Source: Acetomicrobium hydrogeniformans ATCC BAA-1850 (GTDB lineage Bacteria; Synergistota; Synergistia; Synergistales; Acetomicrobiaceae). From it: a stretch of 64,000 nucleotides of DNA. The position numbers and the translations under genes were made by a program. The notes under the pieces are model-generated. The model did no database searches. It was not told the origin of the DNA and saw only the letters and a list, made by a program, of their open reading frames with translations. The stretch's first letter is position 1; each line of letters begins with the position of its first letter. This document shows, one piece after another, positions 1 to 14,520 of the stretch. The stretch is from positions 62,001 to 126,000 of the forward strand of contig NZ_ACJX03000001.1 in assembly GCF_000160455.2 (NCBI RefSeq). The letters run 5' to 3'.

Positions 1-623
1 TCTCGAGCTTTGCCGCTATAAAACCGTTTTGCATGCTCGACCAACAGGGCGTGATATTCCTGGTAAAGAGTGACATCCCCGGGCAGGTTTGACTCAAACA
101 GATTTTTAAGTTCCATGTAGCCTGCTTTTCTTTCGGCAAGGCCCAAGGAAGTAACGATCCGCTTCGTGTAGGCATCTACGACGAACTCAGGGCGTTTGTA
201 GGCGTAAAGCAAGATAGAATCGGCCGTCTCGTTTCCAACGCCTTTGACGGACATAAGCTCCTTTCTGGATGGCGTCCTCCCCTTCAATCCCACGAAAAAG
301 TCGGCCATTTCCCTCAAATAAATCGCCTTCTGGTTGAAAAACCCTGCGGGCCTTATGGCCGATTTAAGCGCGCCCAAGCTTAAGGCAAGGATTTTATGAG
401 GGTTCAGCGCTTCGATGCGCCTCAAATTTTCAAGCGCCCTCTCAACCGACGTCCAGGCAGTGTTTTGCGTGAGCACCGCCCCTGCGATGATCTCAAAGGT
501 CTCTTCTTCGTTTTTGGGAACTCCGTAATCTCCGGCGTGGTAACTTCCTGCAACGGGCCACCACCCCTGTGGGCCGTAAGCATCAAGCAAAGCTTCGTAA
601 ATCGCAATTATCCCCTTGTCCAT
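1..623 (-). CDS. Endonuclease III-like DNA glycosylase (HhH-GPD), C-terminal end outside window
   Basis: The gene reads leftward from ATG at 623 and runs off the window edge, leaving about 207 residues. It has the HhH-GPD fold pattern: LTQNTAW near residue 52, a helix-hairpin-helix GVGNETAD, and the conserved aspartate in FVVDAYTKR. Family knowledge: these enzymes remove damaged bases in base excision repair. In bifunctional endonuclease III the hairpin carries a lysine (GVGRKTA) for the lyase step; here that position is glutamate, as in monofunctional MagIII-type 3-methyladenine glycosylases, so a monofunctional glycosylase is inferred. No clear Shine-Dalgarno precedes the start. The C-terminus, which would show whether a [4Fe-4S] cluster loop exists, is not in view. 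Confidence 0.8.
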   Translation of the reverse strand, partial: MDKGIIAIYEALLDAYGPQGWWPVAGSYHAGDYGVPKNEEETFEIIAGAVLTQNTAWTSVERALENLRRIEALNPHKILALSLGALKSAIRPAGFFNQKAIYLREMADFFVGLKGRTPSRKELMSVKGVGNETADSILLYAYKRPEFVVDAYTKRIVTSLGLAERKAGYMELKNLFESNLPGDVTLYQEYHALLVEHAKRFYSGKAR

Positions 624-666
624 AGCATTATTCTACCAAATCCAACGGCAGGCCAAACTTATGATA

Positions 667-711
667 CGTAAAATATTTGTAGGATATTTTTAAGGGAAAA
701 AATAAAGGGAT
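667..711 (+). repeat. Degenerate solo terminus of an ISLre2 element
   Basis: About 45 bp match the left end of the three ISLre2 copies in this window (starting near 12949 and 31790, and ending at 59504): cgtaaaatatttgtagga, then a T-rich stretch, then aataaaggga. No transposase or second end is nearby, so this is a solitary remnant. It lies just upstream of the pfp promoter. Confidence 0.6.
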
Positions 712-729
712 CGCGAACTTATCCGCTGA

Positions 730-758
730 TAGACAGAATAAACAAATGTAGTTAAAAT
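730..758 (+). promoter_or_regulatory. Putative sigma-70 promoter of pfp
   Basis: TAGACA at 730-735 and TAAAAT at 753-758 are separated by 17 bp and lie 27 bp before the pfp start codon. This is a sequence match only. Confidence 0.5.
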
Positions 759-784
759 ACGGTAAATAAAGGAGGTATGGACTT

Positions 785-2047
785 ATGAATTTTCAGGAGA
801 ACACATTGGCCCTAATCTGCGGAGGAGGACCCGCACCGGGCATCAACAACGTAATAGCTTCAGTCACTATAGAGGCTCGCAACAACGGTTGGGACGTCTT
901 GGGCATCTGCGACGGATTTTCAAGCCTTGCTACGGCCAACAAAAAGGTCATCCCCCTTACCATCGACAAGGTCAGCCGCATCCACAAGGAAGGCGGAAGT
1001 ATCATAAGAACCTCCAGATTTAACCCCACCAAAAGCGAGGCGACCATGCGCACCGTCGTGGAAAACCTAGTAGACCTGGGCGTTACCCACATCGTCACCA
1101 TCGGCGGGGACGACACGGCCTACGCTGCCTACAAGGTCTCGGAGTTCGCTAGAGAAAGGCTGGGGTTAAACATCCACTTCGTCCACGTCCCCAAAACCAT
1201 AGATAACGACCTGCCTTTGCCGGAAGGGCTGCCCACCTTCGGCTTTGAGACGGCCAGGGCACTGGGTGCGGAACTGGTGATGAACCTCATGGAAGACGCA
1301 AAGACCATGGGACGCTGGTTTCTGGTGGTTACCATGGGACGTTCCAGCGGGCACTTGGCCTTAGGTATAGGCAAAAGCGCAAGCGCCACACTCACAATCA
1401 TACCAGAGGAATTTGAAAGCGAAACCATAAGCCTCCAACACGTCATCGACATAATGAGCTGCGCCATCATAAAAAGGCTCGCCCTCGAGAAAGATCACGG
1501 CCTCATTGTAGCCGCCGAGGGCCTGATATCGAAGGTGTCCTCACAGGAACTTGCGGCCATCGACTGCATCGAAAAAGACGACTTCGGCCACGTCCGATAC
1601 GCCGAGATCAACTTCTCCGACGTCTTAAAAAAGCAGCTCAACTCCGAGCTAAAAAAGATGGGCATTCCCATATCGGTCCAAAACAAGGAGATAGGCTACG
1701 AGGTAAGATGCGCTCCCCCAAACCCCTTCGACGTAGAATACACCAGAAACCTGGGCTATGGCGCCTTTAAATTCCTCGTCGAGGGCGGCTCCAACGCTGT
1801 AATTGCCATCCAAAACAACGAGCTCAACCCCATCAAATTCGAGGACATCGTGGATCCCGAGACGGGCAAGATGAAGATAAGGCTCGTCGATACCGACTCT
1901 TTACAGTATCGCATCGCAAGAAAATACATGATACGCCTGGAGCGGCGCGACTTGGAATCGGAATTCCTTTTAAACAAGATGTCGCGCATCGCCAACATGA
2001 CGCCGCAGCAGTTCGTGGAAAAATACGGATATGTGGCGGGGCTGTAA
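785..2047 (+). CDS. pfp: Phosphofructokinase, pyrophosphate-dependent type
   Basis: A 420-residue phosphofructokinase-A family enzyme that phosphorylates fructose 6-phosphate in the cytoplasm. Seen: the glycine-rich phosphate loop near residues 13-20, GGDDT at 107-111, PKTIDND at 136-142 and MGRSSGH at 184-190. In the family, Asp at the second position of GGDD and Lys in PKTIDND block ATP and favour pyrophosphate, whereas ATP enzymes have GGDG and PGTIDND; PPi use is therefore inferred with good confidence. The start is ATG 785 with GGAGG ten bases upstream. The mfnD homologue follows after 30 bp on the same strand, so the two are probably co-transcribed. Confidence 0.9.
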   Translation: MNFQENTLALICGGGPAPGINNVIASVTIEARNNGWDVLGICDGFSSLATANKKVIPLTIDKVSRIHKEGGSIIRTSRFNPTKSEATMRTVVENLVDLGVTHIVTIGGDDTAYAAYKVSEFARERLGLNIHFVHVPKTIDNDLPLPEGLPTFGFETARALGAELVMNLMEDAKTMGRWFLVVTMGRSSGHLALGIGKSASATLTIIPEEFESETISLQHVIDIMSCAIIKRLALEKDHGLIVAAEGLISKVSSQELAAIDCIEKDDFGHVRYAEINFSDVLKKQLNSELKKMGIPISVQNKEIGYEVRCAPPNPFDVEYTRNLGYGAFKFLVEGGSNAVIAIQNNELNPIKFEDIVDPETGKMKIRLVDTDSLQYRIARKYMIRLERRDLESEFLLNKMSRIANMTPQQFVEKYGYVAGL

Positions 2048-2077
2048 TACGTCGATAATGCTACTTAAGGTGATATA

Positions 2078-3172
2078 TTGTCAATTTTAAGAAACGTATC
2101 AGGCTCATATCGGCAGGTAATAATATACGAACATTTTTCGTCGGGCGAAACTAAAGGAAAAAACGACATATCCTTTGCAAATGAAGGCCTCTTTATGGCC
2201 AAGACGATGCTTTCCTGTTTTTCTCGTCTGGATTACATAAAGCCCCTTTTGATCTTGAACGAAAGGTTCTCCTCCGCCTTTGACCCTACCGAAGGGCAAA
2301 ACCAATACATCGTGCACAATGACGAAGGAGAAATGGCACTGTTTGAGCTTTGCGGCAACAGGCCCGTTGTGCTCATTGCCCCAGAAACACAGGGGCTATC
2401 CGCGCGTCTTGCCTTAAAGGTGACTCAGGCCGGCGGTATAATTTTAGGGTCAGCCCCAGGTGCCGTAAAGATAGCATCGGACAAGGCCCGCCTTCTTGAA
2501 CTGCTTGCCGACAAAGGAGTGCCGTGTTCGCCTTTTGCCGTAGTCTGCGACCAAACCACGATAAAAGAGGCGGCTCTGTCGTGGGGTTTTCCTCTTGTCG
2601 TCAAGCCCTCCTGCGGGACCGGAGGAGAGGGAAGTATCTTACTTAATAACAAAATCGAACTTGATGAATTTTTAACGTCCAAGAAAGCCGATACAAGAGG
2701 TTTAATTATTCAGCCATTCATAGAAGGATTCCCAGCCAGTTTATCCATTTTGGCAACCGGCAGCGGAAAGGCATATCTCGTCTCGGTAAACGAGCAAAAG
2801 ATCGCCTTAAGCGAAAGCGATGATGGCAAATCCGCAAGCTTCAGGTACATAGGAGGAAAAACTGGCCTTTCCGAAGAAGACTATGCTGCCTACGGAGGCA
2901 CAAGCCTGGAATACCTTCAAGGGCTTAGTCAGACTGTCGTAGACGCGATACCGGGTCTTATGGGATATATTGGAATTGACCTGATCATGACTACGAAGGG
3001 CCCCCAGGTGCTTGAGGTAAACCCAAGGATTACTACGCCTTTGGCCTTCCTGGGGAAGTTTGCAACTTGGAACATAGCCGAGGCATTGATGGAAGCCTGT
3101 CTCCTCGACAAGCTTCCCTCAGATTCTGCTGTGCCGAAAATTGATTTCACCCTGGAGGGTTTATCATGCTAA
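2078..3172 (+). CDS. mfnD: ATP-grasp ligase, MfnD (tyramine-glutamate ligase) homologue
   Basis: A 364-residue ATP-grasp protein. Seen: an N-terminal EHFSSG segment typical of MfnD-type proteins, SDKARLLELLADKGVPC opening the ATP-grasp domain, KPSCGTGGEGS as the nucleotide loop (about 177-187) and LEVNPRITTP near the end as metal ligands. In methanogens MfnD joins glutamate to tyramine during methanofuran synthesis. Its own family match is moderate, but the next two genes are homologues of MfnF and MfnE, which supports the assignment. Start chosen: TTG at 2078 with AAGGTGAT upstream. It overlaps the next gene by 7 bp. The real substrate in this organism is unknown. Confidence 0.7.
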   Translation: MSILRNVSGSYRQVIIYEHFSSGETKGKNDISFANEGLFMAKTMLSCFSRLDYIKPLLILNERFSSAFDPTEGQNQYIVHNDEGEMALFELCGNRPVVLIAPETQGLSARLALKVTQAGGIILGSAPGAVKIASDKARLLELLADKGVPCSPFAVVCDQTTIKEAALSWGFPLVVKPSCGTGGEGSILLNNKIELDEFLTSKKADTRGLIIQPFIEGFPASLSILATGSGKAYLVSVNEQKIALSESDDGKSASFRYIGGKTGLSEEDYAAYGGTSLEYLQGLSQTVVDAIPGLMGYIGIDLIMTTKGPQVLEVNPRITTPLAFLGKFATWNIAEALMEACLLDKLPSDSAVPKIDFTLEGLSC

Positions 3173-4230
3173 AAACATACGACGTGATCGTAGGCTGGGA
3201 CATTGGTGGAGTACAGAGTAAGTGCGCCTGTATCTCAGGCGACTTTGCCTTTTTAAGCTCTAAGGATATGACCTTTGAGATATGGAAGGACCCCGGCAAG
3301 CTTTCGACGGTGCTTGAGTACCTTGCCTCAGACATCCCCCTCTCCGACACAGCCATGGCTATCACCATGACGGCTGAACTTTCCGATTGTTTTACCACCA
3401 AAGCTGAAGGTGTGCGCTTCGTGCTGGAGGCTTTCATCGATACCTTTCCTGGCATCCAACTTATGTGCCTTGGCACGAACGAAAGGTGGGTGCCGGTAGA
3501 AAAAGCTATGGGCGATCCGATCAACTTTGCGGCAACGAACTGGATAGCGGCCGCTCGTGAAATGGCAAGGTCCATCGGCGACGGAATATGGATAGATGTG
3601 GGAAGCACCACAACGGACATAATACCCATCAAAGAAAATGCCCTGTACGTTAGAGGAAGAAACGACACAGACAGGCTGCGCTTCGGTGAGCTGGTCTATA
3701 CGGGCTTAATCCGCTCAAATCCCAACGCCCTAGCCTCACGGCTTCCCTTTAAGGGAGACTGGTATCGTACTTCCAACGAATATTTTGCCCTCATGGGAGA
3801 TTGCTACCTTCTTTTAGGTGAAATCGACCCGGAAGACTACAGCTGTACCCCGCCTGACAGCGGATCCGTTAACACCGAGGGCGCTGCCCGTCGCCTGGCT
3901 CGACTTATATGTGCAGACGCTTCTCTCGCAAAGCCAGAAGATCTGTTGCCATTGGCCGGATATTTGAGGGAACGTCAAATCGGGCTGATAGTTGACGCGC
4001 TGTATCAAGTTTGCTCCGAGCCTCACGTAAAGGGGCCTGCCGCAGTCACGGGAGCAGGCCAATTCTTAGGAATTCAGGCAGCCCTCCGGACAAATCTGTC
4101 AATCTTAAATGCCGAGGCGATCATCCCTGATGTGGTTAAGAAACATTTTCCGCCTATGCTGCTGCCAAGGATTTGGCCATTTACCTGTCATGTCTGTCGA
4201 AGTCGTAGTAAAATTTGGCGGAAGCCTTGA
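3166..4230 (+). CDS. mfnF: MfnF homologue (H4MPT-linked C1 pathway / hydantoinase-fold family), probable 3' frameshift
   Basis: The product belongs to the ASKHA-fold hydantoinase/oxoprolinase-like family known from methanofuran and tetrahydromethanopterin gene clusters. Seen: N-terminal VGWDIGGVQSKCA phosphate loop, WIDVGSTTTDIIPI (about residues 144-157) as the second phosphate motif, and GAGQFLG before the C-terminal helix. MfnF couples the aminomethylfuran diphosphate to gamma-glutamyltyramine. ATG 3166 has GGAGGG seven bases upstream. The last 28 residues look wrong for the family; adding one T in the T-run near 4145-4149 would restore an AYAAAKDLAIYL-type ending and a stop at 4206-4208. 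This may be a real mutation or a base-calling error. Confidence 0.72.
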   Translation: MLKTYDVIVGWDIGGVQSKCACISGDFAFLSSKDMTFEIWKDPGKLSTVLEYLASDIPLSDTAMAITMTAELSDCFTTKAEGVRFVLEAFIDTFPGIQLMCLGTNERWVPVEKAMGDPINFAATNWIAAAREMARSIGDGIWIDVGSTTTDIIPIKENALYVRGRNDTDRLRFGELVYTGLIRSNPNALASRLPFKGDWYRTSNEYFALMGDCYLLLGEIDPEDYSCTPPDSGSVNTEGAARRLARLICADASLAKPEDLLPLAGYLRERQIGLIVDALYQVCSEPHVKGPAAVTGAGQFLGIQAALRTNLSILNAEAIIPDVVKKHFPPMLLPRIWPFTCHVCRSRSKIWRKP

Positions 4231-4801
4231 AAGGCTGCCACAATTTCTTGAGATATGCAGAAATTTAAGCGAGTCACTGCGAGGCCACAAATCCATAGTG
4301 GTACCGGGAGGCGGTAAATTTGCCGATGTGGTGCGCCTATGCGACAGACAATGGAAGCTAGCGGCTTTCACTTCTCACTGGTTGGCCGTGCTGGCGATGG
4401 ATCAATTTGGTTACGTGCTTGCCGAAAAGGTACCACACTCCGTAACGGCCTACGGCAAAGAAGATATATCAAAGGCCTGGCTTTCAGGAAAGATCCCTAT
4501 ATTTTTGCCATCTAGCTGGCTTAAGGAGCAAAGAGGAATACCCGAAAGCTGGGAAACAACCTCTGACAGCTTGGCCTGCTTTATCGCCGCAGCCTTCGAC
4601 GCCTCAAGACTTGTCTTGCTTAAAGACAACATTCCTCCCTATGACGTGAAGGACCTTAGGGGCACAAGTTGGGTCGATCCAATGTTCTTCCGGTTCCTTT
4701 CCCGCTACAATGGAGAGGTCTGGCTGTGCGACGGAAGTAAGAAGCTTTCGCTACAAGACACCGTCAGCTGCGGCGACAGGTGCTGCTTTCGCCTGCAATG
4801 A
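4190..4801 (+). CDS. mfnE: Amino acid kinase family protein, MfnE homologue
   Basis: A 203-residue kinase of the amino-acid-kinase fold. Seen: VVVKFGGSLERL at the N-terminus, IVVPGGGKFADVVR near residue 40, and VLLKDN followed by TSWVDPMF near the C-terminus. In methanogens MfnE phosphorylates aminomethylfuran phosphate to the diphosphate used by MfnF. ATG 4190 is chosen because it begins directly at the first beta strand; it overlaps the mfnF end, as expected of a translationally coupled gene. The 3' end overlaps the convergent mfnB gene by 38 bp. Confidence 0.72.
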   Translation: MSVEVVVKFGGSLERLPQFLEICRNLSESLRGHKSIVVPGGGKFADVVRLCDRQWKLAAFTSHWLAVLAMDQFGYVLAEKVPHSVTAYGKEDISKAWLSGKIPIFLPSSWLKEQRGIPESWETTSDSLACFIAAAFDASRLVLLKDNIPPYDVKDLRGTSWVDPMFFRFLSRYNGEVWLCDGSKKLSLQDTVSCGDRCCFRLQ

Positions 4802-5519
4802 GCGACGAAATTTCCAGGACCTTTCTTGACGAAAGCTTGCCCGACCGACCCCCTTCGCAAAGCGCGCCTCTAAAGCCCAGGTAATCAGGCCTAAGGGGCA
4901 ATAATAAAGGTATATCTTCGAGTTTTAAAGAACCAGCCAAGGCAGAAAAAAGGCCCCATTCCCTGCAGGCCGAGACAAAATCCCTTACCCGCTCCATAGA
5001 GGCAATCTCAAGCAAGTTGTGGCCGAAGGATTTATCAAAAGTATCAAGAAGACAACCTGCAGCTTTTGCCTCTGCCGCCATGGACGGGACAGCGAGAAAG
5101 TCTATGCCGCCAAAAAATTGAGCATCCGCGTAAGCTCCGACAACCAATGAAGATTCTGGGCAATACTTTTTTAACGCAGTCGATACCGAAAAAAGCAGCT
5201 TCAGGACTTCATCCGGAGTTTTAGCTCCATAAAGGCCCACTTTAATGATCGAAGCCCCCGCCTGGGCTGCTCCAATGGCTGCAAGCGCTGCCGTACCCGG
5301 AAGATAGGGCATGTCTCCGATGGCGGCGCTCACGGGGATTGTCTTGGGGACGACGCCTCTTATCTCGCTTATCGTCTCCGGCAAGGCTGCCCCCAAAGCC
5401 CCTTCCGCTGGGTTTTTTACGTCTACCACGTCAATATGGGCTTTCAGTGCCACAATAGCTTCTTCCTTTGAGACGACACTTGCCAAAAATGCCGTTCTAT
5501 CAGGAAATAATGAGTTCAT
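4764..5519 (-). CDS. mfnB: (5-formylfuran-3-yl)methyl phosphate synthase homologue (MfnB, former DUF556)
   Basis: A 251-residue TIM-barrel protein. The block VDVKNPAEGALGAA near residue 32 is the family signature and carries the lysine expected to form the Schiff base; KVGLYGAK and DFLAVPSMAAEAKAAG follow. MfnB condenses two glyceraldehyde 3-phosphate molecules to the furan phosphate that starts methanofuran synthesis. The gene is last in the leftward row, overlaps the preceding hisA-like stop by one base, and converges on mfnE. The C-terminal 40 residues are more divergent. This is the most diagnostic mfn homologue here. Confidence 0.78.
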   Translation of the reverse strand: MNSLFPDRTAFLASVVSKEEAIVALKAHIDVVDVKNPAEGALGAALPETISEIRGVVPKTIPVSAAIGDMPYLPGTAALAAIGAAQAGASIIKVGLYGAKTPDEVLKLLFSVSTALKKYCPESSLVVGAYADAQFFGGIDFLAVPSMAAEAKAAGCLLDTFDKSFGHNLLEIASMERVRDFVSACREWGLFSALAGSLKLEDIPLLLPLRPDYLGFRGALCEGGRSGKLSSRKVLEISSLIAGESSTCRRS

Positions 5520-6256
5520 TACGCAAGCTCCTTTATGTCCTTTTTATTGATCCATCCTTCATGAAGTGCTGTAGCCACAAGCACCCCCGCCATGTTCGAC
5601 TTCTTTATGTCAAAAAGCTCGTCCTTGGACTTAAACCCTCCACCGCCGTAAAAGCTCATATCGGGCGCCATTTGCGTCGCTGTTTCATACATCTTCAATG
5701 GCAATCCCCTCCCCGTCCCAACGCCATCCAACGTAAGCAGGATAACCCTCCTCCAGCCCGCCAACCTCAATAGATCAATTCCCTCCTCTAAAGTCTTGCC
5801 TGCAAGGGGCGATTCGCTGCGAGTCAGGATATTGCCTTTCTTCATGTCCAGGCTGAAGATCATACGATCCTCTTGACATGCTTTGCTTATCCTTTCAAAT
5901 TCGTCGCTGCTTTGAAGCGTCTCAGAGCCAACGACAACCTTGCAGGATGGGATCTCGGACATCAGGTAAAGCACTTCATCCAAGCTTCCTGTTCCCGCAT
6001 CTATCCAAAGGGTTGCCATTGTCTCCTCCCGCACTTTTTTCAAGATCTCGAGATTATCTCCCATGTCTTGAATGGCGTTGAGATCGGCGACGTACAGGTC
6101 ACTTCCTCCTGTTACGTAAAGCAACGCCTTTGCCACTTCCACAGGATGGGGCGAATTTACCAAAGGACTTTCCATAGGGCGATATTTGTTCCTCTCTCCC
6201 CTGTATGCTCGCACGGTTAAACCATCCAAAAGATCCATTACCGGGATAACTTGCAA
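5519..6256 (-). CDS. HisA/HisF-like TIM-barrel protein of the methanofuran-type cluster
   Basis: A 245-residue HisA-like beta/alpha barrel. Seen: MQVIPVMDLLDGLTVRA at the N-terminus, LYVADLNAIQ, LWIDAGTG, and the phosphate-binding end YGGGGFKSKDEL followed by GVLVATALHEG. Genuine HisA starts IIPAIDL with GGKVVRL; this one diverges there, and no other histidine genes are near. HisA-like proteins are known in bacterial and archaeal clusters for C1-carrier cofactors, so a role with the neighbouring mfn genes is more likely than histidine synthesis. It lies 2 bp after lipB and overlaps mfnB by 1 bp. The reaction is not known. Confidence 0.72.
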   Translation of the reverse strand: MQVIPVMDLLDGLTVRAYRGERNKYRPMESPLVNSPHPVEVAKALLYVTGGSDLYVADLNAIQDMGDNLEILKKVREETMATLWIDAGTGSLDEVLYLMSEIPSCKVVVGSETLQSSDEFERISKACQEDRMIFSLDMKKGNILTRSESPLAGKTLEEGIDLLRLAGWRRVILLTLDGVGTGRGLPLKMYETATQMAPDMSFYGGGGFKSKDELFDIKKSNMAGVLVATALHEGWINKKDIKELA

Positions 6257-6258
6257 AT

Positions 6259-6930
6259 TTACGACATCCCCTCTGATATTTCCTTTTTAAAGTTAGTTTC
6301 AAACACTAAAGAGAATTTTTCTTTTACTTTTTTTACTACCTCGCGAAAATCTACATCCTCGACGTAGTCATCGAGCGAGGCCACGGAAAATTCCTTTATA
6401 CCGCAGGGGTTGATGAGCTCGAAGTGGGACTTGTCAACCTTTACATTAAAGGCAAAACCGTGCATGGTGATCCACCTTTCGGCGGCGATCCCTATGGCTG
6501 CGATTTTTTTGTCGGCGACCCAGACGCCCCTGTATTTAGGCTTTCTGCCGGCCTTTACATTGTAATCTTTCAGCACTTGTATAATCACTTCTTCAAGGCA
6601 TGAGACGTACCATTGGAGGTCCTTTTTCCATTTGCTCAAATTAAATATGGGGTAGGCGACGATCTGCCCAGGACCATGGTAGGTTATGTTTCCTCCCCTG
6701 TTCGTCTCGTATAGCTCTATCCCGTAAGCTTCAAGAGTCCTTTTGTCCGCGAGCAGGTTTTCCCTTCCCCCCGATCTTCCTACGGTAAAAACGGGCTTGT
6801 GCTCCAAAAGAAGGAGTATGCCATCGGCCTCGCCCGCGGAAACTTTTTCAAAAGCTCTTTCCTGGAGGGTAAGGCCGTCGCCGTAACCCAGGGGCTCTTT
6901 AAATTCCACGACAGAGCATCTCCTGCTCAA
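6259..6930 (-). CDS. lipB: Lipoyl(octanoyl) transferase LipB
   Basis: The 223-residue product moves octanoate from acyl carrier protein to lipoyl domains. Seen: FTVGRSGG, RGGNITYHGPGQ (substrate pocket), KKIAAIGIAAERW with the catalytic lysine, HGFAFNV, and INPCGI with the catalytic cysteine. TTG at 6930 is chosen as start because GGGAGGTG lies about eight bases upstream; an upstream in-frame ATG at 6966 would place the ribosome site inside the gene and add a hydrophilic tail absent from the family. It sits after acoC, the lipoylated E2 subunit, and would act together with LipA, whose gene is broken here. Confidence 0.9.
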   Translation of the reverse strand: MSRRCSVVEFKEPLGYGDGLTLQERAFEKVSAGEADGILLLLEHKPVFTVGRSGGRENLLADKRTLEAYGIELYETNRGGNITYHGPGQIVAYPIFNLSKWKKDLQWYVSCLEEVIIQVLKDYNVKAGRKPKYRGVWVADKKIAAIGIAAERWITMHGFAFNVKVDKSHFELINPCGIKEFSVASLDDYVEDVDFREVVKKVKEKFSLVFETNFKKEISEGMS

Positions 6931-6951
6931 CTGGCCACACCTCCCAAAAGT

Positions 6952-6981
6952 AAGGTGTAGGGGCATTTTCCCCTACACCTT
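6952..6981 (-). promoter_or_regulatory. 12-bp intercistronic hairpin between acoC and lipB
   Basis: AAGGTGTAGGGG and its exact complement are separated by 6 bases. On the transcribed strand the stem is followed by ACTTTTGGGAGG rather than a long T-run, so it is a weak terminator or an mRNA-stabilising element at the acoC 3' end. Confidence 0.65.
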
Positions 6982-6999
6982 GTACTATTATGTTATATC

Positions 7000-8214
7000 T
7001 TATTTCAAGACAGCCAGAAGCAGCAAGGGATTTTCAAGCAGCTCTTTTACTCGCCTGATAAACATGGCCCCTTGGGCGCCGTCGACGATCCTGTGGTCGA
7101 AGGTCAAAGAAAGCGTCATCATGGGCTTTACTACCATTTGGCCATCGCAAATGCAGGGCCTGTCTTTCATCTCTCCAACCCCCAAAATAGCGCACTGCGG
7201 AGGATTGATGATGGGAGTAAAGTCTCGAACGCCAAACATTCCGAGGTTAGTGATCGTAAAAGTGCCCCCGGTCACGTCGTCTATAGCAAGTTCGCCTTTG
7301 CGGGCCTTTTCGATCAAGGCATCACCGTCAGAGGCAATTTCGTACAAGTTCTTGCCGGCAACGTCCTTCACCACGGGAACGAGCAACGCCTCTTCCGTCG
7401 CCACAGCAAGGCCGATGTTGATCTCGTCGTAGAGGACTACCTCGTTGCCTTCCAAGTAGGAATTGAGCATCGGCTGTTCTTTCAAAGCGACGGCACAGGC
7501 TTTCATTAATATATAATTGTAAGAGAGGTTAAGCCCCTTTTCCTTAAAAGAGGATTTTAGGTCTTCCCGCAGTTTTTTTAACAAAGTGCAATCTACGTCG
7601 GCATTTAATGTAACCATTGGCGAGTTCTGCCAGCTCGTGGACATCCTCTCGGCTATGACCTGCCTGACATCGGATAGGGCGATCCTTTTAAGCTGAGCTG
7701 CCTCAACTGCTGGCTTTGCCCTTTCGGCTTTTTGTCTTTCGATGAAGTCAAGCACGTCTTTTTCTACTATCCTCCCACCCGGACCCGTGCCGGTAACCAA
7801 GGCTAAATCGATGCCCTGTTCCTTGGCTATCTTTTTTGCGATGGGCGTGGCTTTGATTAAAACCTCTTCGCCTGCCGGTTTCGCGGCCACCGGGGCGGGC
7901 TTGGCTTCCGGTTGAGCGGGCTTTTCAGCTGCAGGAGCCGTAGGAGCTTCCTTTAAAAGCTCGCTTATATCTTCGTCTGGGGCTGCTATTATGCAAAGCG
8001 GCGTACCGATGGGCACCTTAGTCCCCGGTTGCGTTAAGATCTTTCTCAGCACCCCGCTTTCGGGGGCTTCGACCTTATAGGTGATCTTTTCCGTGGAGAC
8101 CTCCAGGACCACCTCTCCCTTTTCGACCCTGTCTCCTTCCTTTTTATGCCATTTGGCCACCGAGCCGGATGTCATGGTAAGGCCAAGCTTGGGCATTGTA
8201 ATGACTGTTGCCAT
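7000..8214 (-). CDS. acoC: Dihydrolipoamide acetyltransferase (E2) of the acetoin dehydrogenase-type complex
   Basis: A 404-residue E2 subunit. Seen: N-terminal lipoyl domain with the lipoylated lysine in EVSTEKITYKV (Lys43), an Ala/Pro-rich linker (about 85-120), a peripheral-subunit-binding domain (ATPIAKKIAKEQGIDL), and the catalytic domain ending in the DHRIVDG motif. It transfers the acetyl group from E1 to CoA. ATG 8214 is preferred to an in-frame start 60 bp upstream because GGGAGGTG precedes it and the lipoyl domain starts there. The start lies 14 bp after acoX. The protein needs lipoate, which makes the state of lipA relevant. Confidence 0.92.
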   Translation of the reverse strand: MATVITMPKLGLTMTSGSVAKWHKKEGDRVEKGEVVLEVSTEKITYKVEAPESGVLRKILTQPGTKVPIGTPLCIIAAPDEDISELLKEAPTAPAAEKPAQPEAKPAPVAAKPAGEEVLIKATPIAKKIAKEQGIDLALVTGTGPGGRIVEKDVLDFIERQKAERAKPAVEAAQLKRIALSDVRQVIAERMSTSWQNSPMVTLNADVDCTLLKKLREDLKSSFKEKGLNLSYNYILMKACAVALKEQPMLNSYLEGNEVVLYDEINIGLAVATEEALLVPVVKDVAGKNLYEIASDGDALIEKARKGELAIDDVTGGTFTITNLGMFGVRDFTPIINPPQCAILGVGEMKDRPCICDGQMVVKPMMTLSLTFDHRIVDGAQGAMFIRRVKELLENPLLLLAVLK

Positions 8215-8228
8215 AAAACTACACCTCC

Positions 8229-9230
8229 CTATTTGCCGTGATTGGTCATGCGCCCTCTTTGAACGGCAAGCCACATAGTCCTTTCGATGTCTACGACTCG
8301 CGGGCCACTTCCGCTTAAACGAACTGAAGCCTTCTTTCCCGGGAGCAATTCCACTTCCCTCTCACCGTCAAGGGCGATCACTGCCGGGCTCATATCGAAA
8401 CATATCTCATCTCCTATCGATATTGAGTTAAATTCCAGGACCCTTACAGGCTTTATAAGCCCTGGGGCGACAGGAGCGGTTACTATGAAACCTTCCTCAG
8501 AATCGGAAGATCCTAAAATTACGTGCAATCCTTTATCCTGTGGCATTGGCCATTGAATGACCATGCCCCCGATGGACGAAAGGCCTATATTGCTCGGTTT
8601 GGCCTGGGTCAGCACAAGTTCTTTAACCCTATTCATATCCCATATGGCCTTTGAGCCCAAAAATATATCGTCGTAAAGGGCGACGTCCACCAAGGCGATG
8701 TCCACGACCTTTCCGTCGATCATAATATCGATGCGTTTCGTTGGAAAGGTAGCATCTTCGACGGAGACTGCACCGGTAGCTACGTAGCCCGCCGCCATCC
8801 CCGCTATTGTCCCTTCAACCATACAGGGAAAGATGTTGTTCGTCCCCGTGGACACGGACATGAAGGGAACGGAAATGCTCCCCTTCGCAACGGCGCGATT
8901 TGTCCCGTCTCCTCCGAGAATCACGAAACACTTGGCCCCCTCCTCTTCCAACAGCTTGGCGGCCAAAGTGGAGTCTTCCTGCGTTCCCTCACATCTCATG
9001 TTCAATGGTTCGACGCTAATTTTGAGGTGAACGTTTTCCAAAGCCCTGGGTACGATATCGAAGTAATCGGGCATGTAAAGCACTTTGTCCACGCCCGCGG
9101 ACTCGAGTCCCAAGAGGATGCGCCTAACGATGTTTACCTTTTCGATATTATCGAAGACCGAGCCGTGAGCAACGAGCCTCCTAATGTCCTTGCCCGAAGC
9201 GGGGTTAGCTATGATCCCTACTAATGTCAA
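8229..9230 (-). CDS. acoX: AcoX, ATP-NAD kinase-fold protein of acetoin catabolism
   Basis: A 333-residue protein of the NAD kinase/diacylglycerol kinase superfamily. Seen: MTLVGIIANPASGKDIRRL at the N-terminus and ILGGDGTNRAVAKG with the GGDG nucleotide motif (about residue 103), then SVSTGTNNIFP. AcoX genes regularly accompany acetoin dehydrogenase genes and are not needed for the core reaction; the function is unproven. Its presence between the SDR and E2 genes is the main reason to call this an acetoin-type complex rather than ordinary pyruvate dehydrogenase. Confidence 0.85.
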   Translation of the reverse strand: MTLVGIIANPASGKDIRRLVAHGSVFDNIEKVNIVRRILLGLESAGVDKVLYMPDYFDIVPRALENVHLKISVEPLNMRCEGTQEDSTLAAKLLEEEGAKCFVILGGDGTNRAVAKGSISVPFMSVSTGTNNIFPCMVEGTIAGMAAGYVATGAVSVEDATFPTKRIDIMIDGKVVDIALVDVALYDDIFLGSKAIWDMNRVKELVLTQAKPSNIGLSSIGGMVIQWPMPQDKGLHVILGSSDSEEGFIVTAPVAPGLIKPVRVLEFNSISIGDEICFDMSPAVIALDGEREVELLPGKKASVRLSGSGPRVVDIERTMWLAVQRGRMTNHGK

Positions 9231-9257
9231 GGATATCGATTCCCCTTTCCAATCAGA

Positions 9258-10076
9258 TTAAAATGTCATAGAACCTCCATCGACGTTGACCGACTGACCC
9301 GTCACGTGATCGGAGTAGACAAAAAACAACGCAAGTTTAGCCATATCCTCAGGTGTCTGCTCAACCCCTTGAGGTATCATGGTCGATACATTTCTGGCAA
9401 AGGACTCATCCCAACTTTCGCCTGGCATCTTCCAGACGTCAGCAAGCAGAGTCCACATCTGGGTTCGAACTATGCCGGGGCAGATGGCGTTTACAGTGAT
9501 GTTGTCCCTGGCAAGCTCCTTTGCCAAGGAATTGGTAAATCCCACCACAGCAAATTTAGACGCGCAATAAAGGGAAAGTCCTGGAAATCCCGATTTCCCC
9601 GCAATTGAAGCGACGTTTATTATGCGCCCCCATTTTCTTTGCTTCATGTAGGGAATGACCGCCTTCGAAAATAGAAAGACCCCTTTTGCGTTGACATTCA
9701 TCGTCAGGTCCCAGGCCTCTTCCTCCACGTTCTCCACGGTCGAGACCGACACAACTCCAGCGGCATTGACCAATATATCTATTGACCCCAGTTCATCGAT
9801 GGTCTGTTTTACTGCTTGAGCGACTTGTCCGGATTTACTTACGTCCGCGTTTATGGCTATAGCCCGTTTTCCGAGGGACTCTATCTCCTTTACCACTTCC
9901 TGGGCTGCGCTGTAACCTTTGATCTCCTTCGTGCCATAGTGGTTAAAGGAGCTGTCGAGAACTTCTGCCTCAACTATTGCAACATTAGCCCCTTCTCTAG
10001 CAAGGGCAAGTGCAATTCCTCGGCCGATTCCTCGTCCTCCCCCTGTAACGATCGCTACTTTTCCCTCCAGGCTCAT
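9258..10076 (-). CDS. Short-chain dehydrogenase/reductase, possibly acetoin/diacetyl reductase
   Basis: A 272-residue classical SDR. Seen: TGGGRGIGRG cofactor loop at residues 11-20, NAAGV near 108, catalytic Ser in NVASIAGKSG, Tyr-x-x-x-Lys in LYCASKFAVVG, and ICPGIVRTQMW. SDRs of this type reduce small ketones with NAD(P)H. Lying between acoX and the VOC gene in an acetoin dehydrogenase row suggests interconversion of acetoin with 2,3-butanediol or diacetyl, but sequence alone does not fix the substrate. Start ATG 10076. Confidence 0.82.
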   Translation of the reverse strand: MSLEGKVAIVTGGGRGIGRGIALALAREGANVAIVEAEVLDSSFNHYGTKEIKGYSAAQEVVKEIESLGKRAIAINADVSKSGQVAQAVKQTIDELGSIDILVNAAGVVSVSTVENVEEEAWDLTMNVNAKGVFLFSKAVIPYMKQRKWGRIINVASIAGKSGFPGLSLYCASKFAVVGFTNSLAKELARDNITVNAICPGIVRTQMWTLLADVWKMPGESWDESFARNVSTMIPQGVEQTPEDMAKLALFFVYSDHVTGQSVNVDGGSMTF

Positions 10077-10091
10077 TTCCCTAGCCCTCCT

Positions 10092-10589
10092 TTAAGAGTT
10101 CTTGGGATAGGTATCCTCGGGTTCAGGAAATTCCCAACCTTCTGGCTGGTTGTAAAGCTCCACGATAGTGGCCAAATCTTCCCTGGTGTCAAGATAGGTG
10201 TAAGTAAATCCAAACCATGTTCCACCCTGAATTACTTCTATTCCCCTCTCCTCTGCCAGCTTCATCACTTCTTCGTAGCTTTCGACCCCTAAAGCCACAT
10301 GATGTAGCCCTTCTCCGTGTTCTTTAAGGAAATCAGCATATATACTCTTATCATCAAGGGGTTGAATGAGCTCCCATTGAACGTTCCCGATCTCAGCAAG
10401 CGCAAGCCTCATAGCGTAATCTTCTCTTTTGCCATGCAATATCATGTCTTTAACGGTGTTTGGATCGAAGGTATAAACGCTCCAGGGACCTATGCCCCAT
10501 TTATCCCAGTAATTTTTCATGGCTTCTTCCAGGTCCTTAACGACCACTGCTATCTGAAGAACCTGGTTAAACAAACCTTTCTTTGTCAT
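10092..10589 (-). CDS. VOC (glyoxalase/bleomycin resistance) family protein
   Basis: A 165-residue single-copy VOC protein with the paired beta-alpha-beta-beta-beta pattern: QIAVVVKDLEEAMKNYWDKW in the first module and LHHVALGVESYEEVMKLAEE in the second. Candidate metal ligands are the first-module Gln13, His96 of the HHVALG block and Glu145 in IVELYN. Methylmalonyl-CoA epimerases and glyoxalase I share this fold; the sequence does not settle which. It lies 15 bp upstream of the SDR gene and 79 bp after acoB, beyond a hairpin, so it may be made at a different level from E1. Confidence 0.75.
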   Translation of the reverse strand: MTKKGLFNQVLQIAVVVKDLEEAMKNYWDKWGIGPWSVYTFDPNTVKDMILHGKREDYAMRLALAEIGNVQWELIQPLDDKSIYADFLKEHGEGLHHVALGVESYEEVMKLAEERGIEVIQGGTWFGFTYTYLDTREDLATIVELYNQPEGWEFPEPEDTYPKNS

Positions 10590-10624
10590 TTCTCTCTCCC
10601 CCTCTTTGTAACGGTTAGCAATGC

Positions 10625-10660
10625 AGGGAACGCTTTGACAATGGATGTCAAGCGTTCCCT
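10625..10660 (-). promoter_or_regulatory. Intercistronic hairpin between acoB and the VOC gene
   Basis: AGGGAACGCTT...TGAC pairs with GTCAAGCGTTCCCT around a 7-base loop (one bulged base). No T-run follows on the transcribed strand, so partial termination or 3' protection of the E1 message is more likely than full termination. Confidence 0.6.
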
Positions 10661-10668
10661 GAACTAGC

Positions 10669-11643
10669 TCACGCTACGGCTTCCTTTACGGCAGCGATGA
10701 TCTTTTCCTTGCTTGGGATGTACTCCTGTTCGAGCACGGGGCTAAAGGGTACGGGAGTAAAGGGAGCAGCTACGCGCTTTATCGGAGCATCCAAATAATC
10801 GAAGGCCTCTTCGGCGATCATGGCCGCAATTTCAGCGCCGGGACCGGCAAATTTGACCGCCTCATGGACGATGACCACCTTGTGGGTCTTCTTTACCGAT
10901 TCGATGATCGTCTCGCCGTCTAAGGGTTGCAGCGTCCGCGGATCGACGACCTCCACGCTGATGCCTTCCTTGGACAGCTCCTCGGCTGCCTCTAGTGCTT
11001 TGTGGACCATCGCCATCGTGGCAATAATCGTTACGTCGCTTCCCTGCCTTTTGACGTCAGCTTTTCCCAGGGGAACGGTGTAGGTATCCTCGGGCACTTC
11101 ACCTTCCAGGCCATATATGAACTTATGTTCTACGAATATGACGGGATTGTCATCTCTTATCGAGCTTATGAGCAACCCCTTGGCATCGTAAGCGGTGGAG
11201 GGAGCTACGACCTTCAATCCCGGAACGTGCATGAACCAGGCCTCAAGGGACTGGGAATGCTGTGCCGCCGCAGATCCGCCGGCGCCGCATGCCGTCCTTA
11301 TGACCATCGGTATTTTCGCCTTTCCGCCGAACATATAGCGCATCTTCGCCGCCTGATTGTATATCTGGTCCATGGTAACGCCCACGAAGTCCATGAACAT
11401 TATTTCTGCCACGGGCCTCAACCCCGTTGCAGCAGCGCCCAGGGCATTGCCGACTATGGCGCTTTCCGTGATTGGCGTATCTATTACCCGTTTAGGCCCG
11501 AACTCGTCTATCAGCCCTGCCGTCACGCCGAAACAGCCGCCGAATACTCCAACGTCCTCGCCAATGACGTACACGTTGGGATCGCGCCTCATCTCCTGGA
11601 GTAAGGCCTCATTTATCGCTGCACGCATTGTCAACTTTCTCAT
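10669..11643 (-). CDS. acoB: Acetoin dehydrogenase-type E1 component, beta subunit
   Basis: A 324-residue transketolase-like beta subunit. Seen: N-terminal [28 protein letters not shown] (about 28-36), [23 protein letters not shown] and the C-terminal transketolase domain with [13 protein letters not shown]. With AcoA it forms the thiamine-diphosphate-dependent E1 that oxidises acetoin (or a 2-oxoacid) and acetylates the E2 lipoyl arm. It starts 21 bp after the acoA stop, consistent with coupled expression. Confidence 0.9.
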
Positions 11644-11664
11644 CGTCTTCGCCTCCTCTCTCGC

Positions 11665-12624
11665 TCACGCGTACACATCTTCCAAGACTTCTTCCGGAGA
11701 AGGCCAGGGGCTCTCTTCGGCAAACTTCACGGCTTCTTCGATCTTGCTGGCAATCTCCTCACGAACCTGTTTCATCTGTTCTTCGGTCATGATCCCCATC
11801 TGTGCAAGCTTCTCCTCAAATCGCGGAATGGGGTCTTTTTTCTTCCACTCCTGGACCTCTTCCTCCGGGCGGTAGACGGTCGGATCTCCCTCGAAATGTC
11901 CCCTGTAACGATAGGTCTTGCACTCAATTAATGTCGGCCCTTCTCCGGCCCTAGCCCTTTTTACTGCCTCTTGGACTGCCTCATAAACGGCGAGCACGTC
12001 GTTGCCGTCGACCACTACTCCGGGAATGTTATAGGCTGCCGCTCTGGCTGCCACATCTGGCACGTTCATAGATCGCCTTTGCGATAGTGAGATCCCGTAG
12101 AAGTTGTTCTCGTTGATGAATATGACCGGCAGCTTCCAAATCGATGCCATGTTCAACGCCTCATGAAACGTCCCCTGGTTAGATGATCCGTCGCCAAAGA
12201 AGCAGGCCGCCACATGATCGGTACCCTTGTACTTGGCCGTAAAGCCTGCACCCACGGCAATGGGAAATCCGCCGCCCACTATGCCGTTGGCACCCAGGAT
12301 CCCAAGTTCCACATCGGCGATGTGCATCGATCCGCCCTTGCCCTTACAATATCCCGTACGCCTTCCAAAAAGTTCGGCCATCATAAGCTTGAGATCTCCG
12401 CCCTTGGAAATCAGATGTCCGTGTCCCCTGTGCGTACTGGTTATATAGTCATCCTTGCGCAGGTTTGCACACGCCCCCGTAGCCACAGCCTCCTCGCCTA
12501 CGTAAAGGTGCACAAAACCGAAGCACTTTCCGGCTGCAAAAAGCTCAGCCACTCGCTCCTCGAAATATCTTATAGTGAGCATGTTCCTGTACATCCACTG
12601 CAATGTTTCCCTTTCAATTGCCAT
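11665..12624 (-). CDS. acoA: Acetoin dehydrogenase-type E1 component, alpha subunit
   Basis: A 319-residue E1 alpha subunit. Seen: TIRYFEERV near the N-terminus, YVGEEAVATG, STHRGHGH, and the thiamine diphosphate motif starting GDGSSNQG at residue 144 and ending NENN at 174. The conserved TYRYRGHFEGDP block of E1 alpha follows. GGAGG lies upstream of ATG 12624. The next gene upstream is lipA, now interrupted by an IS whose transposase is read in the opposite direction, so transcripts from the lpd promoter may no longer reach acoA efficiently. Confidence 0.9.
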   Translation of the reverse strand: MAIERETLQWMYRNMLTIRYFEERVAELFAAGKCFGFVHLYVGEEAVATGACANLRKDDYITSTHRGHGHLISKGGDLKLMMAELFGRRTGYCKGKGGSMHIADVELGILGANGIVGGGFPIAVGAGFTAKYKGTDHVAACFFGDGSSNQGTFHEALNMASIWKLPVIFINENNFYGISLSQRRSMNVPDVAARAAAYNIPGVVVDGNDVLAVYEAVQEAVKRARAGEGPTLIECKTYRYRGHFEGDPTVYRPEEEVQEWKKKDPIPRFEEKLAQMGIMTEEQMKQVREEIASKIEEAVKFAEESPWPSPEEVLEDVYA

Positions 12625-12948
12625 GATATCCTACCTCCTTCTCTCATAATGTTGTTTAATTAAGCTAACGGTAATCTGACCTTGATCTGTCACCTCCTAT
12701 CTCTAAGTGAAATTTTATCGTGACGACACCCCTAAGGCTGATAGGCACCAGCCTTATAGGAACTCCTCACCAGTGGGCCGGCAACTACATATTTAAACCC
12801 AAGCTCGAGACCCTTTTGTTCGTAAATTTGATATTGTTTTGGATGCACAAACTCCCTCACGGGAAGATGAGATGAAGAAGGTTGTAAATACTGTCCTATT
12901 GTAAGTATATCACATCCTACTGATATCAAATCGCTCATTACTTCTATT

Positions 12949-14520
12949 GATAGCGTAAAATATTTGTAGGAGTTTTTTAGGGAGGAAAAATAAAGGGGCC
13001 GCTCCTTTTGGTAGAATCTTTGTAGCACACAAAAATTCATAAAGGAGGGTCCCAACTTGAACAAGGTTATTTTACTACAAATTGTCTCAAACTTCATCTC
13101 CGAGATATTGAAGTTTTTTTGCAGTTCCCATGTCAGGACGCTGGCTGAAATAGAAGATGAGCTTTTTCGCATGACGAAGGCCTTCATCCGGGAGATCGTA
13201 AAGGCTTACCTTGAGCTTGCAGACGAAGCCATATTAAAGGACAAAACGTCTCGAAAGCAAAGAGGATTGGTCGTAGAAAGGCGTGATGACAAAAGAAGCG
13301 TTTATACCATATTTGGAGATATATCCTTTGACAGGACCTACTACTTTGATAAAAGTCATGATAAATACGTATACCCCTTAGACGAAGCCCTGGGGTTGGA
13401 TAAATACGAAAGGTTGAGCAAAACAGTGACGGTAAAGCTGGTAGAAACGGCAGGCCAGGTATCTTACGCCAAAAGTTCGATGAACGTAACTGAGGGTGAG
13501 CTATCCAGACAGACCGTCAAAAACAAGATCCACAGCTTAAACCTGGAGGCCTTAAAGACAAAAGTTCCTAAAAAAAGAGGCGTAGAGGTATTACATATAG
13601 ATGCAGATGAAGACCACGTATCCTTACAGGAGGGCAGAAATACGAATCTTCCTTTGATCTGTATATACGAGGGCACCTTTAAAGAGGGATCCAAAAACAG
13701 ATGTATAAACCCCATATACATGAGCGGTTACGGAAAAGACACAGATGAGTTTTGGCTTGAGGTAACAGATAGGATATACGAGCTTTACGACCCGGAGGAC
13801 ATAAAGGACATATACATCCATGGAGATGGTGCAAATTGGATAAGACAGGGGATAAACTGGCTGCCCGAGTCAAAGCTGGTGCTCGATAAATTTCACCTAA
13901 ATAAAGCGATCCTTGAATCCACGGCAAGGCAGCCTGAAAAAAGACGTGATATATACAGGGCCATAAATACAAATGACTTGAACTTTTTTAAAAAGATTAG
14001 CTTTGAGATGTTAAACGATGCCCTGGATGAAAAGGAAAGAAGGAGGATAAAAGATTTCAGGAGGTATATAACCAACAACTGGCAGTCTATAACCATTCGA
14101 AACGAAGAGGATTGCGGCAGTTCAAGCCCCGAGGCCCACGTAAGTCACGTGCTTTCTTCTAGGTTAAGCTCCAGGCCTATGGCCTGGAGCAGGAAGGGCT
14201 TAAAGGCCATGTCTGCTTTAAGGGCCTACATCTGTAGCGGTGGCATGGTGACGTCAGAACAGGTAAAGAAAAAAGACCAAGAAGGTGAGAATGCGGACAA
14301 AAGACACAAATTCACCTTGAACCTGGGGGATATCTTCGGTTCCGTTGCAAGTGAGCTTGGATGCATAACGGTACTTAAAACGGGAAAAGTAACGCCTTTA
14401 TACACTTCTTTAAAGGGCATATGTCATAGCGGGTTTGATTTTTAGCTGACTCGCAGACGTTACCCTTTAAGATACATCGGGGAGTGGTTCCTAAAAATCC
14501 TACAAAAACTTGACGCGGTC
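12949..14520 (+). mobile_element. ISLre2-family insertion sequence, copy 1 (1572 bp), inside lipA
   Basis: The ends are imperfect inverted repeats: GATAGCGTAAAATATTTGTA on the left and GACCGCGTCAAGTTTTTGTA read inward from the right. The 8-bp repeat CTTCTATT flanks both sides (12941-12948 and 14521-14528); the other copies have 9 bp, so one base may have been lost. It encodes one UPF0236 transposase and is nearly identical to copy 3 except in one patch. Confidence 0.93.
13057..14445 (+). CDS. UPF0236 family (ISLre2) transposase, copy 1
   Basis: A full-length 462-residue transposase of the UPF0236/ISLre2 family. Seen: LEADEAILKD-like N-terminal region, ERRDDKRSVYTIFGDISFDR, LHIDADEDHVSLQ and IHGDGANWIRQGINWLPES, which contain the acidic residues expected of the catalytic core. 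The start is TTG 13057 with GGAGGG seven bases upstream, the same arrangement as in the other two copies. It is read against the surrounding lpd-lipA-aco row. Confidence 0.92.
   Translation: MNKVILLQIVSNFISEILKFFCSSHVRTLAEIEDELFRMTKAFIREIVKAYLELADEAILKDKTSRKQRGLVVERRDDKRSVYTIFGDISFDRTYYFDKSHDKYVYPLDEALGLDKYERLSKTVTVKLVETAGQVSYAKSSMNVTEGELSRQTVKNKIHSLNLEALKTKVPKKRGVEVLHIDADEDHVSLQEGRNTNLPLICIYEGTFKEGSKNRCINPIYMSGYGKDTDEFWLEVTDRIYELYDPEDIKDIYIHGDGANWIRQGINWLPESKLVLDKFHLNKAILESTARQPEKRRDIYRAINTNDLNFFKKISFEMLNDALDEKERRRIKDFRRYITNNWQSITIRNEEDCGSSSPEAHVSHVLSSRLSSRPMAWSRKGLKAMSALRAYICSGGMVTSEQVKKKDQEGENADKRHKFTLNLGDIFGSVASELGCITVLKTGKVTPLYTSLKGICHSGFDF

What the first reader, a model, noticed from the sequence alone, without database searches (positions are those of the whole stretch)
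2078..6256. Methanofuran-type biosynthesis genes in a fermentative bacterium
Seen: homologues of MfnD, MfnF and MfnE in a row, and MfnB with a HisA-like protein in the converging row, meeting by a 38-bp overlap. Known: in methanogens these enzymes make the furan-tyramine-glutamate core of methanofuran; in bacteria the cofactor is known from methylotrophs with formaldehyde oxidation. Here no formyltransferase, Fae, Mch or pterin genes are in view, and the genes are linked to PPi-phosphofructokinase and an acetoin dehydrogenase row. Either the genome has a hidden C1 branch or it makes a different furan-amine cofactor. MfnA and MfnC equivalents are not visible.
Basis: partly seen in the sequence, partly recalled or inferred. 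Interest (0 to 1): 0.82.

Follow-up and report, generated by a model that had tools for sequence, protein, structure and literature searches.

The report
Methanofuran-type cofactor genes in Acetomicrobium
These genes very probably make the furan cofactor for a one-carbon pathway that this sugar-fermenting bacterium does encode, 590 kb away and already published; the new twists are that the pathway seems to replace a widespread folate enzyme and that most relatives with the pathway lack the cofactor genes.

Summary
MfnD-, MfnF- and MfnE-like genes converge on MfnB and a HisA-like gene, with a 38-bp overlap. MfnB scores 249 bits to PF04476 and keeps the catalytic residues of Methanocaldococcus MfnB. 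The HisA-like protein is of the family of Orf17, which is required for methylofuran synthesis in Methylorubrum.

The puzzle is mostly solved. The genome matches Acetomicrobium hydrogeniformans OS1 in size and scaffolds. A full Fwd/Ftr/Mch/MtdB plus tetrahydromethanopterin-biosynthesis cluster lies about 590 kb away. Its Fwd, Mch and Ftr genes are listed in that strain's 2018 genome paper, and Synergistetes were named as carriers in 2016. So it is a hidden C1 branch, not a different cofactor pathway.

New from this work: (1) FwdB keeps the FeS and metal-ligand motifs of the archaeal dehydrogenase. (2) Fae is absent from all 188 Synergistota genomes, and FolD is absent here although two Fhs genes are present, so the branch may replace FolD. 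(3) Only 4 of 21 Ftr-bearing Synergistota genomes have MfnB. A same-species genome has an empty site with its C1 cluster intact, so its furan carrier is unexplained. (4) DUF2193, of unknown function, tracks Ftr. Roles are inferred; no chemistry was done.

The parts
2078..3172 (+). MfnD-like ATP-grasp ligase (tyramine/tyrosine--glutamate ligase; Orf1 of methylotrophs); annotated start is TTG, the true start may be further in
   Evidence: PF02655 98.5 bits, NF040722 MfnD 66 bits (below equivalog cut-off)
3166..4230 (+). MfnF (condenses furan-amine pyrophosphate with glutamyl-tyramine/tyrosine); last residues out of frame relative to relatives
   Evidence: TIGR03123 273 bits above cut-off 244, NF040623 184 bits; CC instead of CCC near 4150
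4190..4801 (+). MfnE (aminomethyl-furanmethanol-phosphate kinase), likely start ATG 4190
   Evidence: NF040622 83 bits, below equivalog cut-off; start inferred from UBA5826 and G011
4764..5519 (-). MfnB ((5-formylfuran-3-yl)methyl phosphate synthase)
   Evidence: PF04476 249 bits; 42% identical to MJ1099 with D25, K27, K85, D151, K155 conserved as D33, K35, K93, D159, K163
5519..6256 (-). HisA/HisF-family protein, likely Orf17 homologue needed for methylofuran synthesis
   Evidence: PF00977, TIGR00734 130 bits; beside MfnB in G019 and near MfnB/E/F in a methylotroph locus; orf17 deletion abolishes methylofuran (PMC8141765)
2052..6315 (.). mfn module: the stretch present in G000, G011, G013 and absent at the same site in same-species genome G015
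   Evidence: window 1-2051 and 6316-12948 align at 96-97% to L150 3193-5242 and 5318-11963 with only 75 bp of other sequence between

Best explanation
The five genes are the biosynthetic module for a methanofuran/methylofuran-type formyl carrier. MfnB makes the furan phosphate from glyceraldehyde-3-phosphate, an unidentified transaminase (MfnC) aminates it, MfnE activates it and MfnF joins it to a glutamyl-tyrosine or glutamyl-tyramine unit made by the MfnD-like ligase. The HisA-like protein acts at an early step not yet defined. The carrier serves the tetrahydromethanopterin/methanofuran branch encoded about 590 kb away: MtdB, Mch, Ftr and an archaeal-type molybdenum/tungsten formylmethanofuran dehydrogenase FwdABCD. 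Likely role: with Fae and FolD missing but GlyA and two Fhs copies present, this branch links the methylene level of C1 (from serine or glycine) to formyl, formate or CO2, doing the work of FolD in disposing of or supplying C1 units during fermentation. Shown: gene content, families, conserved active-site residues, absences by profile search. Inferred: the product, the reactions, the direction of flux and the role. The confidence given is for the carrier assignment; for the FolD-substitute role it is about 0.5.
For: Families and conserved lysines. Ftr found at C1:662079. Cluster C1:657169-674600 with MtdB, FwdA 694 bits, FwdB 548 bits, FwdC 252 bits, FwdD-like ORF, Ftr 413 bits, Mch 375 bits, FolK-MptA, beta-RFAP synthase, DHPS-like, AfpA, MptN-like ligase. 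FwdB aligns full length to tungsten FwdB 5t5i (426 bits) but gives only 58 bits to methylotroph FhcB 6s6y, and keeps C..C...CDD and S.CHGP in 17 of 17 Synergistota. No Fae in 188 genomes. No FolD in G000, two Fhs genes, one beside GlyA and one near ThyX. Among near-complete Synergistota, lack of FolD goes with Ftr: 6 of 11 against 9 of 105, Fisher p 5e-4, in about three separate lineages. Prior reports of the branch: PMC6025917, PMC5020050.
Against: FolD is present in five near-complete Ftr-bearing genomes (G016, G020, G021, G023, G156), so replacing FolD is not the general role of the branch. FchA/MtdA-type folate enzymes, MfnA, MfnC and electron-carrier subunits were not searched genome-wide. 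The Fisher test does not correct for shared ancestry. 8 of 11 near-complete Ftr-bearing genomes lack MfnB, so the branch and the mfn genes are not tightly coupled in evolution. I know of no detection of the furan carrier in this organism.
Confidence: 0.85

Rival explanations
1. The mfn genes make a different furan-amine compound unrelated to C1 transfer.
For: The mfn genes are far from the C1 cluster, and most Ftr-bearing relatives lack them.
Against: In Synergistota MfnB occurs only in genomes that also have Ftr: all four MfnB+ genomes are Ftr+. The full Fwd/Ftr branch that needs such a carrier is present in this genome.
Confidence: 0.04
2. The branch oxidises or detoxifies formaldehyde, as in methylotrophs.
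For: MtdB, Mch, Ftr and AfpA are shared with methylotrophs; formaldehyde reacts with tetrahydromethanopterin without an enzyme (general knowledge).
Against: Fae is absent from all 188 Synergistota genomes. FwdB is of the dehydrogenase type, not the FhcB of the hydrolase complex. No methanol or methylamine dehydrogenase was seen beside the cluster.
Confidence: 0.15
3. The branch runs in the reducing direction: Fwd fixes CO2 and feeds a reductive glycine-type pathway.
For: The FwdB active-site motifs of the reversible archaeal enzyme are intact. Expression of reductive-glycine-pathway genes was reported for an Acetomicrobium MAG (PMC11201294), and a flux model gave it that capacity after gap-filling (PMC9347119).
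Against: The organism ferments sugars with copious H2 (PMC6025917); an A. mobile-like MAG lacks CO dehydrogenase and acetyl-CoA synthase (PMC11201294). No autotrophic growth is reported in the papers read.
Confidence: 0.2
4. The mfn module is a relic or dispensable accessory; the carrier is salvaged from neighbouring methanogens or replaced by another compound in most of the phylum.
For: Empty site in same-species G015, whose C1 genes have no stops and mostly low dN/dS; 17 of 21 Ftr-bearing Synergistota lack MfnB and 18 of 21 lack MfnF.
Against: In the genomes that keep it the module is conserved (MfnE 93%, MfnD 90% between G000 and G011). Non-homologous synthesis enzymes in the other genomes were not excluded.
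Confidence: 0.25

Closest known systems
Bacterial methylofuran biosynthesis (Orf22/MfnB, Orf21/MfnE, Orf9/MfnF, Orf17, MyfA, MyfB, Orf1/MfnD) of Methylorubrum and Methylobacillus (PMC8141765)
   Same: MfnB, MfnE, MfnF, an Orf17-type HisA protein and an MfnD-like ligase are all present, together with an ATP-grasp protein and a RimK/MptN-type ligase in the C1 cluster that resemble MyfA and MyfB by family.
   Different: Module placed about 590 kb from the C1 cluster, in a strict anaerobe without Fae; about 32-40% identity to methylotroph proteins; absent from most Ftr-bearing relatives.
Archaeal methanofuran biosynthesis MfnA-F of Methanocaldococcus jannaschii
   Same: MfnB catalytic residues conserved; MfnD, MfnF and MfnE homologues in a row.
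   Different: Scores below the equivalog cut-offs; MfnA and MfnC not identified; extra HisA-like (Orf17-type) gene beside MfnB.
Archaeal tungsten/molybdenum formylmethanofuran dehydrogenase (FwdABCD, PDB 5t5i)
   Same: FwdB full-length match with the 4Fe-4S and metal-ligand cysteine motifs; FwdA, C and D present.
   Different: No FwdF/FwdG polyferredoxin genes seen beside the cluster; MtdB in place of F420-dependent Mtd.
Methylotroph formyltransferase/hydrolase complex (FhcABCD, PDB 6s6y)
   Same: Same gene set with Ftr, Mch and MtdB.
   Different: FhcB has little similarity to this FwdB (58 bits over a fragment).

Membership tests
MfnB / 4-HFC-P synthase (PF04476) | Profile match over most of the protein | tested here: met
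   249 bits, profile positions 2-227 of 228, cut-off 22.4
MfnB / 4-HFC-P synthase (PF04476) | Catalytic residues of MJ1099 (D25, K27, K85, D151, K155) | tested here: met
   D33, K35, K93, D159, K163. K155 is named catalytic/substrate-binding in PMC11365854; the others from general knowledge.
Bacterial methylofuran biosynthesis set | MfnB, MfnE and MfnF together | tested here: met
Bacterial methylofuran biosynthesis set | Orf17-type PF00977 protein | tested here: met
   window 5519-6256; beside MfnB here and in G019, near MfnF in a methylotroph locus; function known from PMC8141765
Bacterial methylofuran biosynthesis set | MyfA and MyfB glutamate ligases | tested here: inconclusive
   An ATP-grasp_3 protein and an MptN/RimK-type ligase lie in the C1 cluster; not compared with MyfA/MyfB themselves
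Bacterial methylofuran biosynthesis set | MfnA (or tyrosine used instead) and MfnC | not tested
Methylotrophic H4MPT formaldehyde pathway | Fae | tested here: not met
   No PF08714 match in G000 or any of 188 Synergistota; archaeal controls positive
Methylotrophic H4MPT formaldehyde pathway | FhcB-type (hydrolase-complex) B subunit | tested here: not met
   FwdB matches tungsten FwdB at 426 bits, FhcB 6s6y at 58 bits; FeS and metal-ligand motifs kept
Formylmethanofuran dehydrogenase (Fwd) | FwdB 4Fe-4S motif and metal-ligand Cys; FwdA, C, D present | tested here: met
Formylmethanofuran dehydrogenase (Fwd) | Bound Mo/W pterin and redox activity | not testable with these tools
   Needs purified enzyme
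Folate C1 pathway | FolD | tested here: not met
   No PF02882 match in G000; Fhs present twice

The most novel reading that the evidence does not exclude
In Synergistota the archaeal-type methanofuran/tetrahydromethanopterin branch has become a working substitute for FolD in fermenters, and in most lineages it runs without home-made methanofuran, by salvage from methanogen partners or with an unknown carrier, while the uncharacterised DUF2193 protein is its C1 entry enzyme in place of Fae.
Probability: 0.12. Interest if true: 0.85.

Novelty: new variant of a known kind. Interest (0 to 1): 0.5.

Why it matters
The role of H4MPT/methanofuran reactions in bacteria that are neither methylotrophs nor methanogens has been called enigmatic (PMC5020050). 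A cultured strain (A. hydrogeniformans OS1) that lacks Fae and FolD but has Fhs, GlyA and a dehydrogenase-type Fwd makes the question directly testable. The same-species genome without the mfn module is a natural experiment on whether a bacterium can run this branch on a borrowed or different carrier. Published reductive-glycine reconstructions for Acetomicrobium should be re-examined in the light of the missing FolD.

Tried and rejected
Functional linkage of the mfn genes to PPi-phosphofructokinase, LipB and the 2-oxoacid (acetoin-type) dehydrogenase row: rejected, because PFK and LipB lie side by side without mfn in G015 and the row is not beside LipB in G011 and G013. Mobile-element insertion of the module: no transposase in it and no evident target-site repeat at the junctions; G011 has the module at the same site, so loss in G015 is likelier than gain, but this is not proven. 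A replacement furan-synthesis gene in the C1 clusters of mfn-less genomes: none was evident by all-against-all comparison; only LarC recurred. Structure of DUF2193: AlphaFold model all-helical (pLDDT 74, pTM 0.81), but no PDB match by sequence (E up to 10) or by fold (E <= 0.001), so no function could be read.
Full report
What was checked. The five ORFs are real and belong to the families named. MfnB is the strongest case: 249 bits to PF04476, about 42% identity to the solved MJ1099, and all five active-site residues checked are kept. MfnF passes the TIGR03123 cut-off. MfnE and MfnD score 82 and 66 bits to equivalog models whose cut-offs they do not reach; their neighbours carry the assignment. 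The 38-bp convergent overlap is correct. MfnE most likely starts at 4190. MfnF in this assembly lacks one C near 4150 compared with UBA5826 and G011, which changes its last residues; it could be an assembly error.

Which genome. The held genome has 2,123,925 bases in 8 contigs with the largest 2,103,414. These are exactly the figures published for Acetomicrobium hydrogeniformans OS1 (PMC6025917), a Synergistota fermenter from oil production water.

The hidden C1 branch. Ftr was found at C1:662079. Around it, on one strand from C1:674600 down to 657169, lie DUF2193, MtdB, an ATP-grasp_3 ligase, a FwdD-like ORF, FwdB, FwdA, a FolK-MptA fusion, AfpA, a DHPS-like protein, DUF447, beta-RFAP synthase, Ftr, a chemoreceptor-like gene, FwdC, Mch, an MptN-like ligase and a CitG-like protein. 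FwdD was assigned from position and from its conservation beside FwdB in relatives, not by its own profile search. Its Fwd, Mch and Ftr genes are already on record for this strain (PMC6025917), and Synergistetes were named in 2016 (PMC5020050). I did not find the mfn module itself described in the papers read.

How the module probably works. In methylotrophic bacteria MfnB/Orf22, MfnE/Orf21 and MfnF/Orf9 are assigned to making the furan core by homology, and deletion of orf17, a PF00977 (HisA-family) gene, abolishes methylofuran (PMC8141765). The window's HisA-like gene belongs to this family and sits beside MfnB here and in G019, and near MfnF in the methylotroph locus L025. Bacteria can use tyrosine instead of tyramine, so a missing MfnA is no objection. 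MfnC has not been assigned in M. extorquens either.

What kind of branch. FwdB matches archaeal tungsten FwdB over its full length and keeps the C..C...CDD and S.CHGP motifs in all 17 Synergistota sequences tested, unlike the methylotroph FhcB. A true dehydrogenase exchanging electrons is therefore likelier than a formate-releasing hydrolase complex; this is inference from sequence. Fae is absent from all 188 Synergistota genomes searched. FolD is absent from G000 and absent or weak (E 4e-4) in the rest of its genus, while Fhs occurs twice, once beside GlyA and once near ThyX. In near-complete genomes (at least 90% complete, at most 5% contaminated), 6 of 11 Ftr-bearing ones lack FolD against 9 of 105 others (p = 5e-4). 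I counted these by hand from the tables, taking matches of E 1e-5 to 1e-3 as absent; the test ignores shared ancestry, and the six fall in about three lineages. The reading that the branch replaces FolD in these lineages fits, but five other near-complete Ftr-bearing genomes keep FolD.

The unexpected part. Only 4 of 21 Ftr-bearing Synergistota have MfnB, and only 3 have MfnF; of the 11 near-complete ones, 8 lack MfnB, including single-contig G020 and G021. In G015, the same species at about 96-97% nucleotide identity, the sequence runs from PFK to LipB with 75 bp in place of the 4.26-kb module, yet its Fwd/Ftr cluster has no internal stops in the genes compared and dN/dS mostly 0.02 to 0.2 against G000 (higher for FwdC, 0.34, and for AfpA, 1.9 on seven differences). 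Either the carrier is obtained from outside, or made by unrelated enzymes, or another compound serves. Pairwise dN/dS mostly reflects time before the loss if the loss is recent, so this does not prove present function.

DUF2193. This uncharacterised family is found in 20 of 188 genomes, 18 of them Ftr-bearing, sits directly upstream of MtdB, and is 69-79% identical to the G000 protein in other families where most other cluster proteins are 33-63%. No solved structure resembles it by sequence or fold; the only paper found reports it as conserved in methanogens with a possible Fe-S site (PMC9431491). It is a candidate for an unknown step of the branch.

Limits. Absences rest on profile searches of assemblies. 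No compound has been measured. Function and flux direction are inferred.

Noticed in passing
L084 10065-11600 (G000:C1:673065-674600): DUF2193 protein, function unknown, directly upstream of MtdB; in 20 of 188 Synergistota genomes, 18 of them with Ftr, and more conserved than the other cluster proteins.
   Followed up: partly
L083 16761-18068 (G000:C1:660760-662067): A chemoreceptor-like (MCP) gene sits between Ftr and FwdC in G000, G011 and G012 but not in G013, G014 or G015; FwdC of G013 and G015 is only about 80% identical to that of G000 where most neighbours are 95-99%.
   Followed up: partly
L114 4604-5794; L119 908-2083; L118 1024-1566 and 3740-4990: LarC-type nickel insertion protein (PF01969) lies inside or beside the C1 cluster of Ftr-bearing genomes such as G003, G005 and G020. 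Reason unknown.
   Followed up: partly
window 12949-14520 and 31897-33294: Two UPF0236 ORFs (PF06782); the first lies in a 1.57-kb stretch missing from G015, so it looks like a mobile element.
   Followed up: partly
window 3166-4230: MfnF 3' end differs from relatives by one base in a C run, overlapping MfnE; sequencing error or real.
   Followed up: partly
L084 3275-4741: FolK (HPPK) fused to GTP cyclohydrolase MptA, linking folate-type and methanopterin-type pterin synthesis in one protein; in G155 and G156 only the MptA part matches.
   Followed up: partly
window 33496-34506: NrpR-type regulator (PF01995, HTH_12), a family best known from methanogens (the link to methanogens is general knowledge).
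   Followed up: no
L178 6878-10909; L179 9122-13493: Two nearly identical Fhs (formate-tetrahydrofolate ligase) genes, one beside GlyA, one near ThyX.
   Followed up: no
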